From Longimicrobium sp. (GTDB taxonomy: Bacteria > Gemmatimonadota > Gemmatimonadetes > Longimicrobiales > Longimicrobiaceae): DNA of 64,000 nucleotides. Shown in pieces: positions 50,032-61,060 of the stretch. The stretch spans positions 1-64,000 of the forward strand of contig DASVTZ010000186.1 of NCBI GenBank assembly GCA_036387335.1. The letters are read 5' to 3'. Below the pieces are notes generated by a model. The model was not told the DNA's origin. It made no database searches and was given only the letters and a program-made list of their open reading frames with translations. The translations under genes were made by a program, and so were the position numbers. The stretch's first letter is position 1. The number at the start of each line of letters is the position of its first letter.

Positions 50032-52093
<2,062 letters not shown>

Positions 52094-52303: not shown

Positions 52304-53992
52304 ATGACCACAGAGCAAGAATTTCTAAACGAGCTCGATAGAACGCTCTGGACTTCAGCGAACAAGCTCCTGCCCTCGCTGGATGCTGCTGTCTACAAGC
52401 ACGTCATCTTGGGACTCGTGTTCCTGAAATACGTCAGCGACGCATTTGAAGAGCGCCAGGAGGAGTTGCGGGGGCATTTTACGAGCCCCGAGCACGACTA
52501 CTATCTGCCGCGCGAGGACTACGACAGCGACGCGGCTTGGCAGGACGCCGTGGCCGCCGAACTGGAGCAGCGCGATTACTACGCGGAGAAGAACGTATTC
52601 TGGGTACCCGTGGAGGCTCGCTGGCAGTCACTGCGCGATTCCGCCAAGATCCCATCGGGCGCAGAGCTGCCGTGGATGCGGGCCGATGGAACACCTGAGC
52701 GGATGCGCAACGTCGGCTGGCTGCTCGACAACGCCATGGAAGCCATCGAGCGCGAGAACCCCAAGCTGAAGAACGTCCTGAACAAGGACTATGCCCGTCT
52801 GCAGGTCGACGGGGACAAGCTGGGAGAGCTGATCGACCTGTTCAGCAGGGCCAACTTCCATGCAAAGGAGCACAACGGCAATCCGCTGAACCTGAAGGGT
52901 AAGGACATCCTTGGCCACGTGTACGAATACTTCTTGGGGCAGTTTGCGCTGGCCGAAGGAAAGAAGGGCGGCCAGTACTACACGCCTAAAACGATCGTTT
53001 CATTGATCGTGCATATGCTGCGCCCATTCCGCGGCCGCGTATTCGACCCCGCAATGGGGTCAGGCGGCTTCTTTGTTCAGAGCGAAGAATTTGTTGAGGA
53101 GTTCGGCGGAAAGCTGGGGCAGATCTCCGTGTATGGGCAGGAGAGCAACCCCACCACCTGGCGGCTGGCGGCCATGAACATGGCCATCCGCGGCATCGAG
53201 TTCGATTTCGGCGAAGGCCCGGCAGACTCGTTCAACGCCGACCAGCATCCGGACCTGCGCGCGGACTTTGTGATGGCCAATCCGCCCTTCAATATGAAGG
53301 AGTGGTGGAACGCCAAGCTGGAGAACGACCCACGCTGGCAGTTCGGCACTCCGCCGCAGAACAACGCGAACTTTGCGTGGATCCAGCACATGCTTTACCA
53401 CCTCGCGCCGGGCGGGAGCATGGCCCTTCTGCTGGCGAACGGGTCAATGAGTAGCAGCACGGGCGGGGATGGCGAGATCCGGACGGCGCTGGTGGAGCAC
53501 GACCTCGTAGAGTGCATGCTGGCGCTCCCAGGGCAGATGTTCACGAACACGCAGATCCCCGCGTGCATCTGGTTCCTTACCCGCATGAAGGCTGCGCGTG
53601 AGGTGGACGGTCGCCAGTTCGCCGACCGCAGGCGCCAGTTTCTCTTTATCGACGCTCGGCAGATGGGATACATGAAGGACCGGGTACTGCGCGACTTTAC
53701 CCGCGAGGACATCCAGCGCATCGCACGTACCTTCCATGAATGGCAGCAGGGTGAGGGCTACGAGGACGTGCCGGGCTTCTGCAAGAGTGCCACTTTGGAA
53801 GAGGTACGTGTGCACGAGCACGTGCTCACGCCCGGGCGTTACGTGGGTGCGAAGGACATTGAGAGTGACGATGAGCCGTTTGGGGAAAAGATGGTACGAT
53901 TAACGGGGATATTACAGGAACAGTTCGCGGAGGGGGCGCGGTTGGATGAGCGCATCCGGGAGAATCTGGCGGCGTGTGGTTATGCGGTTTGA
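52304..53992 (+). CDS. hsdM: Type I restriction-modification methyltransferase subunit
   Basis: The protein has 562 residues. The HsdM N-terminal helical domain (about 5-150) precedes an N6-adenine methyltransferase with the AdoMet motif FDPAMGSGGFF (about 247) and the catalytic NPPF at 326-329. GGQYYTPKTIVSLIV is the typical linker. It modifies adenines at the site read by HsdS and is needed for restriction too. The hsdS gene overlaps its end by 11 bases. ATG 52304 is the start, in a more AT-rich context than thiC. Confidence 0.95.
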   Translation: MTTEQEFLNELDRTLWTSANKLLPSLDAAVYKHVILGLVFLKYVSDAFEERQEELRGHFTSPEHDYYLPREDYDSDAAWQDAVAAELEQRDYYAEKNVFWVPVEARWQSLRDSAKIPSGAELPWMRADGTPERMRNVGWLLDNAMEAIERENPKLKNVLNKDYARLQVDGDKLGELIDLFSRANFHAKEHNGNPLNLKGKDILGHVYEYFLGQFALAEGKKGGQYYTPKTIVSLIVHMLRPFRGRVFDPAMGSGGFFVQSEEFVEEFGGKLGQISVYGQESNPTTWRLAAMNMAIRGIEFDFGEGPADSFNADQHPDLRADFVMANPPFNMKEWWNAKLENDPRWQFGTPPQNNANFAWIQHMLYHLAPGGSMALLLANGSMSSSTGGDGEIRTALVEHDLVECMLALPGQMFTNTQIPACIWFLTRMKAAREVDGRQFADRRRQFLFIDARQMGYMKDRVLRDFTREDIQRIARTFHEWQQGEGYEDVPGFCKSATLEEVRVHEHVLTPGRYVGAKDIESDDEPFGEKMVRLTGILQEQFAEGARLDERIRENLAACGYAV

Positions 53993-55388
53993 TAGAGTGC
54001 TCCTTCGGACTCTGATCGAGGAAACGCGGGATGGTGACTGGGGACCTCAGCACGAGGCTCCTGGGAGTGTGCCGTGCCGCGTAATAAGAGGTGGTGATTT
54101 CCCCGATGTTGAGAACGGGGCTGTTTCAGGCGTCCCACTTTGTTATCTGAAACCCTCATCCATCGCACGACGGACACTCCAGCCTAACGACATAGTCATT
54201 GAGACGGCCGGCGGTGCTCGCGAAAGACCCACGGGGCGCGTGCTGCTTATTTCCGCCGATCTCCTAGAGGAGTTCGAGTATCCAGCGACTTGCGCAAGCT
54301 TCGCTCGGTTCATCCGTATAGATTCGAGGAAAGTTAATCCAAAATATGTGTTCTGGTATCTGCGATGGATGTACAATGCCGGGATGATGTGGGAGCACCA
54401 GGTCCAACACACGGGCGTTGCTCGGTTTCAGTTTACGAAGTTTGCTGACACTGTAGAAATTGCGCTCCCATCTCGAGAACACCAGGATTCGGCAGTCGAC
54501 ATTCTCGACTCGTTGCATCACTCCTTGCTCCAAAACCGACGGTTCAATAAGACACTCGAAGACATCGCGCAAACTATTTTCCGAGCTTGGTTTGTCGATT
54601 TTCTACCGGTGCGCGCAAAGATGGTTGCGCGGAGCGAGGGGCGCGACGTGGTACGCGCCGCCATGTGCGTGTTGAGCAGCAAGGCTGAGGATGAGCTAGA
54701 CGAAATGCCGAAGGAGCGATATGAGAAGTTGGCCGAGCTTGCGCAACTATTTCCAGAAGCATTGGACGATTCGGAGATTGGAAAGATCCCGCGAACGTGG
54801 CAAGTTGAAGCTCTACAGACTGTAACAGCCAGCTTAGCTCGCGGCATTTCGCCTAAGTATACAGACAAGGCGGGTATACTTGTGATAAATCAGAGGTGTA
54901 TCCGCGATAACGTGCTCGACTTGTCCAAAGCTAGACGGCACGATTCAAATGTGCGTGGCATTCGCGGACGGGAGCTCTGCGTTGGAGATGTGCTCGTGAA
55001 TTCAACTGGAGTTGGAACTCTGGGGCGTGTTGCCCAAGTGTTCCATCTAGATGAACCTACAATTGTCGATTCCCATGTAACCGTCGTGCGTAGTGGCCCG
55101 TCGATTACATGGAACTTCCTTGGTCTTGAACTCGCTCGCCGCCAATCTGAGATAGAGCAGCTAGGAGAGGGATCCACCGGACAAACGGAACTGAACCGCT
55201 CAAAGCTGGCCGGGCTACTGACTATTGTCCCTCCTTGTGAGGTTTTGGGACACTTCGACGCGCTTACTACGCCCTTGCGGGAGCGTATCTCGTTGGGCCT
55301 CAGGCAAAATGAAACGTTATCTGAGCTCCGGGACAGCGTGCTACCCAAGTTGATTTCAGGGGAAATCCCCCTGAGACACCCGATTTGA
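53982..55388 (+). CDS. hsdS: Type I restriction-modification specificity subunit
   Basis: The protein has 468 residues with two target-recognition domains (about 5-165 and 255-415). Each is followed by a conserved helical spacer (EHQDSAVDILDSLHHSLLQN with TLEDIAQTIFRAWFVDF in the centre; LGLRQNETLSELRDSVLPKL at the end). The central part is extended by about 40 residues (VRAAMCVLSSKAEDELDEMP). Codon use and AT content differ from flanking housekeeping genes, consistent with horizontal transfer. The start at ATG 53982 overlaps hsdM. A start at 53946 is less likely. Confidence 0.92.
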   Translation: MRFDRVLLRTLIEETRDGDWGPQHEAPGSVPCRVIRGGDFPDVENGAVSGVPLCYLKPSSIARRTLQPNDIVIETAGGARERPTGRVLLISADLLEEFEYPATCASFARFIRIDSRKVNPKYVFWYLRWMYNAGMMWEHQVQHTGVARFQFTKFADTVEIALPSREHQDSAVDILDSLHHSLLQNRRFNKTLEDIAQTIFRAWFVDFLPVRAKMVARSEGRDVVRAAMCVLSSKAEDELDEMPKERYEKLAELAQLFPEALDDSEIGKIPRTWQVEALQTVTASLARGISPKYTDKAGILVINQRCIRDNVLDLSKARRHDSNVRGIRGRELCVGDVLVNSTGVGTLGRVAQVFHLDEPTIVDSHVTVVRSGPSITWNFLGLELARRQSEIEQLGEGSTGQTELNRSKLAGLLTIVPPCEVLGHFDALTTPLRERISLGLRQNETLSELRDSVLPKLISGEIPLRHPI

Positions 55389-55399
55389 GGAGCGGTTCA

Positions 55400-56416
55400 G
55401 TGGAATTCCTCCGCTCCCTCTACCACGACGAGTTGAACAGTGAAGGCGATGTCAACATCGTCGGATCTGTCTTCCAGCGTAGTCGTATCTTGTCTGAACT
55501 TGAACCGGCGACGTACAAGCTCTCGTACGATGAGTGGGTTGGACAACGCAAACAGCGGATGCTCGAACGGTCTGAGGACATCCTTGCCTCGCACGTTAAT
55601 GCAGATCGCTTTGCAGCACTCAAGCGCGCTTATCAAAGAGGGACGGTGTTGCCATTCGTGGGAGCTGGGATGTCGATGCCTAGCGGGTATCCAGATTGGA
55701 CTTCCTATCTCTGGAGTGTTCAGGCGGACTCACATGTAGCGGAAGACGACATCGAGAGGCTCTTGAGCAATGAGGACTACGAAGGTGCTGCGCAGACTTT
55801 GTATGATGATTTGGGCTCGAACCTCTTTTCGGAGCATTTGCAGGCCCGATTTGGGTGCGATAACGAGATCTGTGGGCCCATTCAATGGCTTCCCGTCCTG
55901 TTTCCCGATTCGCACGTAGTTACCACCAACTTCGATACCGTCCTTGAACGGGTTTTCGCTCGCTCACAACAAGGATTTGACCGTGTGGTACTCGGCAACT
56001 CGCTACCCGAGGCCGTTCGGTTGGTAGCCGAAGGGGGGCGCGTGCTAATCAAGATGCACGGCAGTTGCGAGGCCACCGCCGATCGTGTCTTGCTCGCGAG
56101 TGAATACGGCCGCGTATACGCCGACGAGGGGGCGGTGAGGCGGTTTTTTTCACGCTTCATATTCGGCCGTTCGCTGCTGTTTCTAGGGTGTCGACTTACT
56201 GTCGATCGGACGCTACGCGCGATGCAGGACGTTGTCGCGGAGGAAGGCGGCGCGAACCTCCCACGCCACTACGCCCTCATGGAACTTGCTGACGGAGTCG
56301 ATCGCGTCGCCCGTACGAAGGAACTCGCCACTTCCAACATCTTCCCGATCTGGTATCCAGCGGGTGAGCACGATGAATCCATTGAAGCTTTGTTAGTAGC
56401 GCTAACGGAGGCGTGA
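55400..56416 (+). CDS. SIR2-domain protein inside the type I RM operon
   Basis: GTG 55400 with GAGGAG seven bases upstream gives 338 residues (TTG 55385 would give 343). A SIR2-like NAD-binding domain is visible: [15 protein letters not shown] (Gly-Ala-Gly at 88-90, Ser92), [13 protein letters not shown] (Thr176-Asn177, Asp179) and IKMHGSCE with His220, the catalytic-type His. There is no zinc-binding CxxC pair, so it belongs to the bacterial defence-type SIR2 group, whose members degrade NAD+. The N-terminal 80 residues are of unknown fold. The start lies 11 bases after the hsdS stop, and the end overlaps hsdR by four bases (GTGA). The gene is thus embedded in the operon. Confidence 0.85.
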
Positions 56417-59400
56417 TACGTCAGTCGAATAACGCCGAGCCCCATTCGGGGCACCTCGGCAATGAGCTTACGGCGCAAATGATGACCGAGCACGAACTCG
56501 AGCAACTCTGCCTCCAATGGTTTCGCAGCGAAGGCTGGCAGACCGCGCATGGGCCAAATTTGACGGCAGACGGCGATTCCCCTGAACGCAACGACTTTCG
56601 AGAGGTGGTGCTTCAGCGCCGGCTGCGCAGTGCCGTTGCTCGGATCACACCGCATCTCCCTGATGCCGCCATCGAACAGGCGGCGCATGCCGCGGCCCAC
56701 GTAAGCCATCCGCTGCTGATCGAGCGCAACCGGCTCTTCCATCGCCTGCTCCTGGACGGCGTGCCGGTGGAGTACATCGACCGAGAGCGGAAGCGCACGG
56801 ATCTGGCGCGGCTGATCGACTTCGAGCACCCGGCGCGCAACGATTTCCTGGTCGTGAGCCAGTTCACCGTGAAGGGCACCAAGCAACTGCGCCGCCCGGA
56901 CCTGGTGGTGTTCGTGAACGGGCTTCCGCTGGCGCTAATCGAGCTCAAGAACCCGGCGGACGAGAACACCGACGTCTGGGACGCGTTCAACCAGGTCCAG
57001 ACCTACAAGGACGAGCTCCCGGACCTCTTCACGACCAACGAGGCGCTGGTCGTGAGCGACGGCGTGACCGCGCGTATCGGATCGCTGAGCGCCGACCCGG
57101 AGCGGATGCTCCCGTGGCGTACCATGCGGCACGAACGCGACCGCCCGCTGCTGGAGTTCGAACTGGAAACGCTGGTCCGGGGCTTCTTTATGCCGGAGTT
57201 GTTCCTGGACTACGTCAGGTATTTCGTCCTGTTCGAGCAGGACGGCGGCACGCTCACTAAGAAGATCGCGGGCTACCACCAGTTCCACGCCGCGCGAGAG
57301 GCGGTGCGGGCCACCGTTGTCGCCACGGCTTCGCCCGCATCGGGCGTGGAAGTGCACGAGCCGATCTGGGTGCGTGACCACGAGGTGCTGCCCGGGTCGC
57401 ACAAGGCAGGTGTCGTGTGGCACACGCAGGGCTCGGGCAAGAGCATCACCATGGCGTTCTACGCGGGCAAGCTGCTGCAGCAGCCTGAAATGCGGAACCC
57501 GACTCTCGTGGTGGTCACTGACCGCAACGACCTAGACGGACAGCTCTTCGGCACTTTCAGCGCCGCCGCCGAACTTCTGAAGCAGACGCCGGAGCAGGCC
57601 AACAGCCGCGAAGAACTCCGTGAGATGCTGGCCGCCCGCACGGCTGGCGGGATCATCTTCACGACCGTTCAGAAGTTCACGCTGCTGGAAGGCGAGGCCG
57701 CGCATCCGCGGCTCACCGACCGCGGAAACGTAGTCGTGATCTCGGACGAGGCGCACCGCAGCCAGTACGGCAAGGCCGCGCGCCTCGATCCCAGGACGGG
57801 CCGTTACGTCTACGGGTACGCCAAGCATCTGCGCGATGCCTTGCCGAACGCGACGTTCATCGGCTTCACCGGAACGCCCGTGTCGCTGGAGGACCGGGAC
57901 ACCCGCGCGGTGTTCGGCGACTATGTCAGCATTTACGACATCCAGGATGCGGTGACCGATGGGTCCACGGTCCCCATCTACTACGAAAGCCGCCTGGCGA
58001 AGCTCGACATCAACCAGGCCGAGATCGAGCGCCTGAGCCGGGAGGTGGAGGAGGTTGTCGAGGACGAGGAGGACGTCGCCGCCCGGGAGCGGGCCAAGAG
58101 CGAGTGGGCCACGCTCGAAAAGCTGGTCGGGGCGGAGCCACGGCTCAACCAGGTAGCCGCTGATCTCGTGCAGCACTTCGAGGCACGGCTGGAGGTGCTG
58201 GAGGGCAAGGGGATGATCGTGTGCATGAGCCGTGACATTTGCGCGAGCCTTTACAACGAGATCGTCGCGCTTCGTCCCGACTGGCACGACCCGGATCCTG
58301 AAAAAGGCGCCATAAAGGTGGTGATGACCGGCTCCGCGTCCGACAAGAAGCTGCTGCAGCCGCACCTGTACACGAAGCAGGTGAAGAAGCGGCTTGAGAA
58401 GCGGTTCAAGGACCCCGCCGATCCGCTCCGGCTCGTGATTGTCCGCGACATGTGGCTCACCGGCTTCGATGCTCCGCCGTGCCACACGATGTACGTGGAC
58501 AAGCCGATGAAGGGGCACAGCCTGATGCAGGCCATCGCCCGCGTCAACCGCGTCTTCCGCGATAAGCCGGGCGGTCTGGTGGTGGATTACATCGGCATCG
58601 CCAACGAACTGAAGAGCGCGCTGAAGACCTACGCAGATGCCCGGGGACGCGGAGACGCCACGCTCCGGAGCGAAGAGGCGCTCGCCATCGTGCTGGAAAA
58701 GCTGCACGTGCTCGCGGGGATGATGCACGGCCTGGATTATCGCGCGTACGAAACGCAGGCGCTCAAGCTTTTGGTGCCCACGGCCAACCACATCCTGGGC
58801 CTGAAGGACGGAAAGACGCGGTTCTTGGACACGATGGCGGCGCTCATGCCCGCGTATGCGCTCTGCGCGACGCTCGATGATGCCGCCGAAGTACGCACGG
58901 AGGTCGCATTTTTCTCGGCGGTCCGGGCCGCCATCCTCAAGTTCACCACGGTGGAGCGGAAGCGCACGGAGGCGGAGAAGCACAGCGCGCTCAAGCAGAT
59001 CCTCGACAATTCCATCGTCGCGACGGGCGTAGACGACATCTTCGCCCTGGCTGGGTTGGAGAAGCCGAATATCGGCCTCCTCTCCCCGGAGTTCCTGGAG
59101 GATCTGAGGCACATGCCGGCCCGAAATCTCGCCGTGGAGCTGCTCGAAAAGCTGCTCCGGGACGAGATCCGCTCCCGCAGCCGTACGAACGTGTTGCAGG
59201 AGAAGAAGTACGACGAAAGGTTACGGGAGGCGCTGCGCAAGTACCACAATCGTGCAATCGAGACGGCGCAGGTCATTGAGGAACTGATCCAGATGGCCAA
59301 GGAGTACCAGGCCGAGCTGGAGCGTGATGCGAACCTCGGTCTGTCCGCTGACGAAATCGCGTTCTACGATGCGCTCGCGAACAACGAGAGTGCCGTTCGG

Positions 59401-59625
59401 GAACTCGGCGACGAGGTGCTGAAGAAGCTCGCTGTCGAGATCACACAGAAGCTCCGTGAGAGCGTGACGATCGACTGGCAGAAGCGCGAAGCCGTGCGCG
59501 CGCGGCTCCGCATTCTGGTTCGACGGTCACTCCAGAAGTGGAAATATCCGCCTGACAAGCAGCCTGGCGCTGTGGAGCTCGTTTTGGAACAGGCGGCTGC
59601 CCTATCCGACCGCTGGACCCGGTAA
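56413..59625 (+). CDS. hsdR: Type I restriction endonuclease subunit (translocase/nuclease)
   Basis: The protein has 1070 residues from GTG 56413, or 1048 from ATG 56479. The N-terminal nuclease has the PD-ExK pattern Asp163 (RRPDLVVF) and Glu177-x-Lys179 (IELKNP). The SF2 helicase motor has Walker A TQGSGKS (340-344 region), DEAH at 445-448 and GFTGTP. The C-terminal helical region contacts HsdM/HsdS. It translocates and cuts unmodified DNA. It ends the operon. The next bases after its stop begin a decayed thiC tail. Confidence 0.95.
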
Positions 59626-59629
59626 GCCG

Positions 59630-59752
59630 CTGCCGTACGACGATGAGACGCTGTTGGCGGAAGGCGCCAGGATCGCGCACTTCTGCAGCATGTGCATCCC
59701 CAAGTTCTGGTCCATGAAGACCACCTATGGCGTCCGCGACTACGCCGCCCGA
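59630..59752 (+). pseudogene. Decayed copy of the thiC 3' region
   Basis: Over about 123 bases this aligns without gaps to thiC 51848-51970, roughly 80% identical by hand count. Translation gives [20 protein letters not shown] then [10 protein letters not shown] and VRDYAAR, against thi[38 protein letters not shown]. The third iron-sulfur Cys is Trp, so it cannot be a working end. It starts four bases after the hsdR stop. Downstream sequence to 59843 has no gene. Confidence 0.85.
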
Positions 59753-59843: not shown

Positions 59844-60689
59844 TCATGTCCGCGGACCAGACACGGCTTGGAAGTCAGCCATCTCATGAAGCCACTTGAG
59901 GATCGCACTGTTGGTAGAGTCTGAATAGATATCGTTGAGGACAGTCGCCGCGTCGGCCACCTGCGGCATGGTGTCGTCCAGTTTGGGACGTGCGGCCAGC
60001 GTATTGTCCGCCAGATCGGCTGTCCGCACGTAGATCTGGCTGAACGTCGCTACAACGGCTGTAGAGCCCAAACGTATCGCAGGCGCAATTGGCAGAAGGC
60101 TATAGAACAACAGCTCAGTGACGAACGCGAAGAAGGCAAGGTCGTACGGCACTCCCCAGACTACGTCGACACTTCTCATGTAGACCCGGCAGTTGAGGTA
60201 GTCGTCCGCAACGAAAAAGTGCGCCGCCACTGCGCACGGGAAATCGGCGCCGTCCGGGTCCTTGTGCCATGGCTGATTGATGTTGATCAGAGCCCTGCGA
60301 GACTGGAGATTCCGCGAGAGGCAGTCCAGCACCCACTGGAACTGAGATTGGCCCCTGGGCCGCTCGTGAAAGACGTAATAGCCGTAGTTCGAATTCACAT
60401 ATCCATACTGGTCAGCAATTTCACGCCAGCGCCTGGCAGCCTGCTGAAGTCCATCGCGAGCCCGTAGAGATCCGCGAAAATACGCCAAAAACTCTCGCGC
60501 CAGATACTTGAGCGAATCCGGGGCACGCAAGGTGAGCAGCCGGCGCCTCGAATCGGAAAGGAGGAGGGTAAGATCGTGCACCTGCTGGGCCGGCCCCTGC
60601 CTGGTCTTCACCGCATACCCGTGCGTTTTGATAAATTTAATCGCTTCAATACACAAGACGTCCATGGAGCTGGCCGTAATCACGTTCAT
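59844..60689 (-). CDS. Thymidylate-synthase-superfamily enzyme with dCMP-type active site
   Basis: ATG 60689 gives 281 residues. Aligned on E. coli ThyA, the nucleophile is Cys152 ([11 protein letters not shown]), the phosphate Arg/Ser are Arg172-Ser173 (YMRSVD), and the motif residue Asp175 is kept. The Asn that selects dUMP (ThyA Asn177) is Asp183 in GVPYDLAFF. The His after the Cys is Ala, and the THLY motif reads SQIY. An Asn-to-Asp change at this place is found in T4 dCMP hydroxymethylase and shifts preference to cytosine nucleotides. A deoxycytidylate (or CMP, as MilA/BcmA) hydroxymethylase or methylase is likely. It lies next to the RM island on the opposite strand, so a link to base modification or antiphage defence is possible. 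Confidence 0.7.
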
Positions 60690-60769
60690 GCGTAGCGTCT
60701 CCGGAGATCTGGACGGTGTAGACGAGCGGTGAGAAGGGGCGGGGCCCCGCTGAGGGTGCTGGTATCTAC

Positions 60770-61060
60770 TTGCGGCAAGCGTGGGCGTCAACCCGAGGCC
60801 TGCGTTCGCACTTCGCCTGCGACTGTACAACTCCAAAGTATGGCACGAATGGGCGCCATGAATCGAAAAGAGGACGAAGGGATGGACTCCAGGACGTACG
60901 TGGGGGTCTGGACCCGGCGGGCTTACTGGCCGTCGCGCAGGCGGAGAGCACGATGGGGCAGGACGTAACGGTCCGACTGCTGCATGCGGCCGATTTCTGG
61001 CTGTGCGGACAACCCGGCTGGCTCGCGGACCGGCTCGCCCCTCTCGTGCTCCCGGAGTGA
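60770..61060 (+). other. Uncertain short ORF or remnant before the CAT-like gene
   Basis: A frame ending in GQDVTVRLLHAADFWLCGQP and closing LAPLVLPE overlaps the GTG of the CAT-like gene as GTGA, the way real coupled genes do. Its N-terminal half looks like out-of-frame DNA and no start is convincing. It could be the 3' end of a lost gene. The rest of 60690-61056 holds nothing recognisable. Confidence 0.25.

What the first reader, a model, noticed from the sequence alone, without database searches (positions are those of the whole stretch)
55400..56416. SIR2-domain protein in the PrrC position of a type I RM operon
The gene order is hsdM-hsdS-sir2-hsdR with overlaps on both sides, so the SIR2 gene is an operon member. 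E. coli prr places the anticodon nuclease PrrC between the hsdS-like and hsdR-like genes, where it stays silent until a phage inhibitor blocks the restriction enzyme. Catalytic-type residues are present (GAG at 88-90, TTN..D at 175-179, His220) and there is no zinc site. Other defence systems with SIR2 (Thoeris ThsA, DSR, SIR2-pAgo) deplete NAD+. I infer an RM-guard that depletes NAD+ when the RM complex is inhibited. I do not recall this exact gene set being described, but I cannot search.
Basis: partly seen in the sequence, partly recalled or inferred. Interest (0 to 1): 0.88.

Follow-up and report, generated by a model that had tools for sequence, protein, structure and literature searches.

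The report
NAD-destroying gene in restriction operon
A gene for a probable NAD-destroying "cell-suicide" enzyme sits as a fixed fourth gene inside a bacterial type I restriction (DNA-cutting antivirus) operon; the same arrangement recurs in several bacterial phyla and an archaeon, which suggests, but does not prove, that the restriction machinery controls the suicide enzyme.

Summary
The window carries an intact type I restriction-modification operon, hsdM-hsdS-sir2-hsdR, with tight or overlapping junctions. N177 and H220 are invariant in all 37 relatives aligned and match the NADase dyad of ThsA (N112/H152) and DSR2 (N133/H171). A confident AlphaFold2 model matches ThsA, DSR2 and KomC. The protein has no zinc motif and no recognised sensor domain.

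The gene recurs. Its close relatives form one clade (SH-aLRT 97) directly downstream of hsdS in six other bacterial phyla and an archaeon, including a second type I family with the order hsdR-hsdM-hsdS-sir2. Selection is purifying (dN/dS 0.03-0.12). However, sir2 has been swapped between RM backbones (Mantel r 0.43, against 0.97 for hsdM-hsdR), and the hsdS-hsdR gap carries other defence modules elsewhere, so passive cargo remains a serious rival.

Best reading: a sensor-less NADase effector coupled to the RM complex, working like PrrC but not a PrrC relative. Sir2 linkage to type I RM, and the toxin-coupling idea, were published in 2012. New here are the defined family, its hsdS-adjacent position in two RM types, and its conserved NADase site. 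Trigger and activity are untested.

The parts
52304..53992 (+). hsdM, N6-adenine methyltransferase subunit (562 aa)
   Evidence: PF02384 1.8e-106, PF12161 4.9e-19; NPPF and DPAMGSGGF motifs
53982..55388 (+). hsdS, specificity subunit (468 aa; ATG at 53982, 11-bp overlap with hsdM)
   Evidence: PADLOC Specificity_I 2.3e-93; Pfam Methylase_S only sub-threshold, 20.2 bits; overlap read from sequence
55400..56416 (+). sir2: ThsA/DSR-type SIR2 protein, 338 aa (GTG start; alternative TTG start at 55385)
   Evidence: PF13289 1e-22; AF2 model pLDDT 92.4, Foldseek best BcThsA 8e-14
55661..55675 (+). codons 88-92, GAGMS: predicted NAD-binding loop of SIR2
   Evidence: G88, A89, G90 and S92 invariant in 37 relatives; position
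55922..55936 (+). codons 175-179, TTNFD: predicted catalytic N177 (ThsA N112, DSR2 N133)
   Evidence: T, T, N, D invariant in 37 relatives; HMM alignment to DSR2; residue roles PMC11263360
56057..56062 (+). codons 220-221, HG: predicted catalytic H220 (ThsA H152, DSR2 H171)
   Evidence: invariant in 37 relatives; aligned with DSR2 H171; roles PMC11263360
56413..59625 (+). hsdR, restriction/translocase subunit (1070 aa from GTG; 4-bp overlap with sir2)
   Evidence: TIGR00348 2.5e-185; PF11867 3.5e-121; PD-ExK, Walker A, DEAH intact
59618..59749 (+). partial duplicate of the thiC 3' end (intact thiC ends at 52093), marking the likely right edge of the inserted block
   Evidence: blastn 122 bp at 83%, E 7e-28; tblastn 59618-59743, E 4e-13

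Best explanation
This is a four-gene type I RM defence operon in which sir2 encodes a sensor-less NAD+-degrading effector whose activity is controlled by the Hsd complex. In the resting cell the SIR2 protein is silent. When the Hsd complex is perturbed (blocked by an anti-restriction protein, or engaged on unmodified DNA), SIR2 is released or assembled, hydrolyses NAD+, and stops phage growth at the cost of the cell. Shown here: gene order, tight junctions, NADase-type fold and dyad, recurrence, one supported clade, purifying selection. Inferred: NADase activity, silence at rest, control by the RM complex (HsdS or HsdM2S is the likeliest partner, since hsdS is the constant neighbour), and the trigger. 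It works like PrrC but is unrelated to it.
For: (1) All 37 aligned RM-linked SIR2s keep GAG.S, TTN.D and HG, which match the ThsA and DSR2 dyads; the model (pLDDT 92) matches ThsA, DSR2 and KomC. (2) RM-linked SIR2s are one clade against 31 other SIR2 rows (SH-aLRT 97, one change against 22.6 in shuffles). (3) sir2 starts -20 to +16 nt from the hsdS stop in nearly every locus; the two exceptions carry one extra gene between hsdS and sir2. (4) The position after hsdS is kept in a second type I family whose order is hsdR-hsdM-hsdS-sir2. (5) sir2 dN/dS is 0.03-0.12 in close pairs, in the range of hsdM and hsdR. (6) At 338 aa it lacks the SLOG domain of ThsA and the long C-terminal region of DSR2, so a sensor must come in trans; the operon offers only Hsd proteins. 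Other short SIR2 effectors also work with partner proteins from their operons (own knowledge; KomBC complexes in PDB).
Against: The sir2 tree agrees poorly with hsdR and hsdM (Mantel 0.43 and 0.40; hsdM-hsdR 0.97), so there is no tight co-evolution with one RM backbone. The same slot carries apparently self-sufficient defence modules in related operons. sir2 has lower GC3 than hsdM/hsdR in 30 of 30 loci, which fits separate, cargo-like acquisition. No complex, activity or trigger was tested.
Confidence: 0.5

Rival explanations
1. Independent abortive-infection NADase carried as cargo: sir2 senses a phage protein on its own (as DSR2 does) and only shares the promoter and recombination hotspot of the RM operon.
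For: The hsdS-hsdR gap is a cargo site: 13 of 33 related operons in the host phylum carry at least one forward ORF of 150 aa or more there, many of them known defence types, none of them SIR2. Published: DarTG2 in the same slot, site called a potential recombination hotspot (PMC12255303). sir2 swaps between RM backbones.
Against: Cargo should also be found outside RM loci, but the whole clade is RM-linked, in two RM families with different gene orders and always after hsdS. The protein has no recognised sensor domain.
Confidence: 0.3
2. Addiction variant: SIR2 is a toxin restrained by HsdM/HsdS or by host methylation, so loss of the RM operon kills the cell. The benefit is to the operon, not to the host.
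For: Mobility of the unit: plasmids, IMG/VR contigs, and the thiC 3'-end insertion in this window. Type I RM is not normally addictive (own knowledge).
Against: sir2 lies in the same operon as the Hsd genes, so loss removes the toxin gene too; nothing is known of a toxin protein more stable than its restrainer.
Confidence: 0.08
3. Regulatory sirtuin: SIR2 deacylates or ADP-ribosylates an Hsd subunit or DNA to tune restriction.
For: Operon membership. Makarova 2012 suggested ADP-ribosylation or nuclease roles for such Sir2 proteins (PMC3506569).
Against: No zinc Cys4 motif; nearest relatives by sequence and fold are NADases.
Confidence: 0.07

Closest known systems
PrrC / EcoPrrI (anticodon nuclease in a type IC RM operon)
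   Same: Effector gene between hsdS and hsdR of a type I RM operon; PrrC acts when the RM enzyme is blocked (PMC3506569, PMC12707154).
   Different: PrrC is an ABC-ATPase plus HEPN tRNA nuclease; this is a SIR2-fold protein with no detectable relation. Coupling is shown for PrrC, not here.
Thoeris ThsA
   Same: SIR2 domain with the same N/H dyad; best PADLOC hit (1e-17) and best PDB fold hit.
   Different: No SLOG domain and no TIR (ThsB) gene; different operon. RM-linked SIR2s are a separate clade.
DSR1/DSR2
   Same: SIR2 NADase dyad aligned with DSR2 N133/H171.
   Different: No long C-terminal sensor region; far below the NCBIfam cut-off (Dsr1 35.7 against 1400 bits).
Sir2-type I RM association of Makarova et al. 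2012
   Same: States that Sir2 enzymes are linked to type I RM and proposes coupled suicide (PMC3506569).
   Different: No family definition, position rule, NADase assignment or phylogeny in the passages read; suggested nuclease or ADP-ribosylating roles.
DarTG2 embedded in an E. coli type I RM operon (RptR island)
   Same: Toxic NAD-using defence module between hsdS and hsdR (PMC12255303).
   Different: DarTG is a toxin-antitoxin pair with its own antitoxin; the SIR2 here has none in view.

Membership tests
Type I restriction-modification system | HsdM, HsdS and HsdR with intact catalytic motifs | tested here: met
SIR2 NADase effectors (ThsA/DSR2/KomC type) | SIR2 fold with Asn/His dyad, no zinc-binding cysteines | tested here: met
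   dyad roles from PMC11263360
SIR2 NADase effectors (ThsA/DSR2/KomC type) | NAD+ hydrolysis | not testable with these tools
   needs a biochemical assay
PrrC | ABC-ATPase domain and HEPN anticodon-nuclease domain | tested here: not met
   only PF13289 found
PrrC | gene between hsdS and hsdR | tested here: met
PrrC | kept silent by, and activated through, the RM complex | not testable with these tools
   needs co-purification and infection experiments
Thoeris | ThsA with a C-terminal SLOG domain plus a TIR (ThsB) gene | tested here: not met
   protein ends after the SIR2 domain; neighbours are Hsd genes
DSR1/DSR2 | SIR2 plus long C-terminal helical sensor region (about 1000 aa in all) | tested here: not met
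   338 aa; 35.7 bits against a cut-off of 1400
SIR2-HerA, SIR2-pAgo, Kongming | HerA, pAgo or KomA/KomB partner gene next to sir2 | tested here: not met
   neighbours are hsdS and hsdR in the window and relatives
Protein-deacylase sirtuin | zinc-binding Cys4 motif | tested here: not met
   no CxxC in the protein

The most novel reading that the evidence does not exclude
Type I RM complexes of these two families are two-output immune sensors: the HsdM2S complex (or HsdR bound to it) directly controls a SIR2 NADase subunit, so the cell first cuts foreign DNA and, if the complex is inhibited or over-engaged, depletes its own NAD+. This would be an old, single-origin RM-NADase coupling spread across several bacterial phyla and an archaeon.
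Probability: 0.35. Interest if true: 0.75.

Novelty: new variant of a known kind. Interest (0 to 1): 0.52.

Why it matters
If the coupling is real, one of the oldest known classes of prokaryotic immunity (type I RM) has a built-in suicide arm that uses NAD+, a second example beside PrrC with an unrelated effector. That would turn the 2012 immunity-suicide coupling hypothesis into a testable system with a defined family, defined catalytic residues and a defined partner candidate (HsdS/HsdM). Even if sir2 is only cargo, the family is a well-marked probable NADase for which neither PADLOC v2.0.0 nor NCBIfam gave a dedicated matching model.

Tried and rejected
(a) First genome-contig scan with the single window protein found no relatives; the alignment query then found 43 loci. 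(b) L055 looked like a SIR2-HsdR fusion; it is a 970-aa SIR2 protein (no HsdR domain found) beside a truncated hsdR, not a fusion. (c) L037, a close relative not seen in an RM context, is on a 5.9-kb MAG contig with the SIR2 frame joined to the start of a short-chain dehydrogenase, so probably a rearranged or chimeric contig; it nests inside the EcoEI-type subclade. (d) Co-divergence of sir2 with hsdR as proof of coupling: tested, weak. (e) Other SIR2 genes from the host phylum showed no adjacent hsd genes, but those loci show only about 1.5 kb each side. (f) A SIR2-Hsd complex prediction was not possible with the single-chain tool. (g) Literature: I found no paper in the library that joins this SIR2 with hsdS/hsdR beyond Makarova 2012. 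The Payne 2024 preprint on defences embedded in immune systems (cited in PMC12255303) is not held and could list this gene.

Full report
OBSERVATION. The four genes lie on the + strand at 52304-59625: hsdM, hsdS, sir2, hsdR. One correction: with the GTG start at 55400 there is an 11-bp gap after hsdS; only the alternative TTG start (55385) overlaps. The hsdM/hsdS overlap (11 bp) and sir2/hsdR overlap (4 bp) are real. HsdM and HsdR motifs are intact, so the operon looks functional.

WHAT THE PROTEIN IS. Pfam gives SIR2_2 (PF13289, 1e-22), PADLOC gives ThsA (1e-17) and weaker LmuA and Dsr1, NCBIfam gives only sub-threshold Dsr1/Dsr2. A profile of four members finds DSR2, ThsA, KomC and FAM118B in the PDB. 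In that alignment the TTN.D and HG motifs of the family fall on DSR2 N133 and H171; these correspond to the ThsA catalytic dyad N112/H152 (PMC11263360). In 37 family members GAG.S, TTN.D and HG are invariant. AlphaFold2 gives pLDDT 92.4, and Foldseek puts BcThsA first (E 8e-14), then DSR2 and KomC. The protein is a SIR2 core plus an N-terminal piece of about 65 residues, mostly helical. No SLOG, HEAT-like, TPR, CHAT or STAND domain was found.

RECURRENCE. Three full-length plasmid relatives (Ketogulonicigenium, Vibrio maritimus, Photobacterium damselae) are all in hsdM-hsdS-(x)-sir2-hsdR. The genome scan returned 43 loci. Close relatives lie in the order M-S-sir2-R in alpha-, beta- and gammaproteobacteria, Desulfurivibrionaceae, a Flavobacteriaceae MAG, a Cloacimonadota MAG and the archaeon Methanoperedens, and on three IMG/VR contigs. 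A second group (L034, L035, L038-L041, L047) has another type I family with sir2 after hsdS; where the contig reaches far enough the order is R-M-S-sir2, and the HsdR is of EcoEI type where tested (L038). Its members come from Gammaproteobacteria, Nitrosomonadales, Armatimonadota and Verrucomicrobiota. The query alignment came from RM-linked members, but candidates were accepted by similarity of the SIR2 protein alone, so the context is an independent result. Close relatives without a full operon in view are explained by contig ends or damage (L022, L034, L035, L037, L045, L046). More distant SIR2 proteins (L050-L056, L060, L061; Thoeris L011-L013) are not in RM operons; one, L055, lies beside a truncated hsdR.

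POSITION AND SELECTION. The hsdS stop to sir2 start distance is -20 to +16 nt in all measured loci but L010 and L045, which share an extra gene of 266-270 aa, weakly like PD-T7-5. Since hsdS is the constant neighbour in both RM families, HsdS or HsdM2S is the natural partner candidate (inference). Close pairs that could be measured give dN/dS 0.03-0.12 for sir2, in the range of hsdM and hsdR, so the protein is maintained.

EVOLUTION. RM-linked SIR2s are one side of a supported branch (SH-aLRT 97) with three subclades (quick tree, midpoint root, several long branches among the others). Patristic distances of hsdM and hsdR agree almost perfectly (0.97), those of sir2 with hsdR only at 0.43. For example, the closely related HsdRs of L014, L015, L023, L024, L026, L049 and L059 carry SIR2s from three different parts of the SIR2 tree. 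sir2 therefore moves between RM backbones but stays in RM operons. sir2 GC3 is below that of hsdM/hsdR in 30 of 30 loci, and hsdS shares the shift (correlation 0.78).

THE SLOT. In the host phylum, 33 operons with related HsdR had hsdS and hsdR resolved on the same strand: 13 had a gap under 100 nt and 13 had a forward ORF of at least 150 aa in the gap, none of them SIR2. Named occupants include AAA_21, KwaB+Abi_C, AAA_14/DUF4143, M78 peptidase, SLFN_AlbA_2, Abi_C+DUF6119 and DUF3800. In SIR2 loci, further genes between sir2 and hsdR are SLFN_AlbA_2 (L014), HEC-01 (L015), HEC-02 (L049) and AbiD (L026; its L059 counterpart looks the same by sequence). DarTG2 occupies the same gap in an E. coli island (PMC12255303). 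This makes the cargo reading a strong rival. What distinguishes SIR2 is that its whole clade stays with RM and next to hsdS even where the gene order differs.

MECHANISM. Likely steps: (1) SIR2 made together with the Hsd proteins by translational coupling (the tight junctions support this); (2) kept silent by the Hsd complex (inferred); (3) triggered by anti-restriction proteins or by DNA engagement (inferred); (4) NAD+ hydrolysis (predicted from dyad and fold); (5) abortive infection (inferred from ThsA and DSR2). My probabilities: NADase effector about 0.85; RM-controlled about 0.5; guard of the Ocr type specifically about 0.25.

KNOWN AND NEW. The Sir2-type I RM link and the coupling idea are from 2012 (PMC3506569). 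PrrC and PARIS are named as RM guardian systems in a recent review (PMC12707154; PARIS itself PMC9122126). I found no later description of this family in the library, but most subscription papers and preprints are not held. I rate it a new variant of a known kind: known concept, an effector family and rule of position that I could not find reported, no demonstrated mechanism.

Noticed in passing
window 50738-52093 and 59618-59749; L166-L171: The hsdM-hsdS-sir2-hsdR block lies between an intact thiC and a diverged fragment of the thiC 3' end. All six same-genus loci examined also hold extra thiC fragments, mostly of the 3' end, near or apart from the intact gene, so the thiC 3' end looks like a recurrent integration site in this genus.
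   Followed up: partly
window 59844-60836 (-): Divergent thymidylate-synthase-like protein (PF00303 2.9e-19, below all NCBIfam cut-offs) just right of the RM block; no match in 20 other genomes of the family.
   Followed up: partly
L015:9020-10794, L049:9019-12381: HEC-01 and HEC-02 defence candidates (AAA ATPase plus DUF4276 or small partner) are embedded between sir2 and hsdR; the ATPases also match PARIS AriA more weakly.
   Followed up: partly
L010:8007-8807, L045:6996-7808: Uncharacterised 266-270 aa protein between hsdS and sir2 in Vibrionaceae, weakly like PD-T7-5; no Pfam match for the L010 copy.
   Followed up: partly
all 30 complete loci, window included: sir2 GC3 is lower than that of hsdM/hsdR in every locus (mean -0.20), across hosts of very different G+C; recent acquisition alone does not easily explain such uniformity.
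   Followed up: no
G000:C192:4952-5374 and G000:C179:15201-15497: Two further SIR2_2 genes in the same genome, not of the RM-linked clade.
   Followed up: partly
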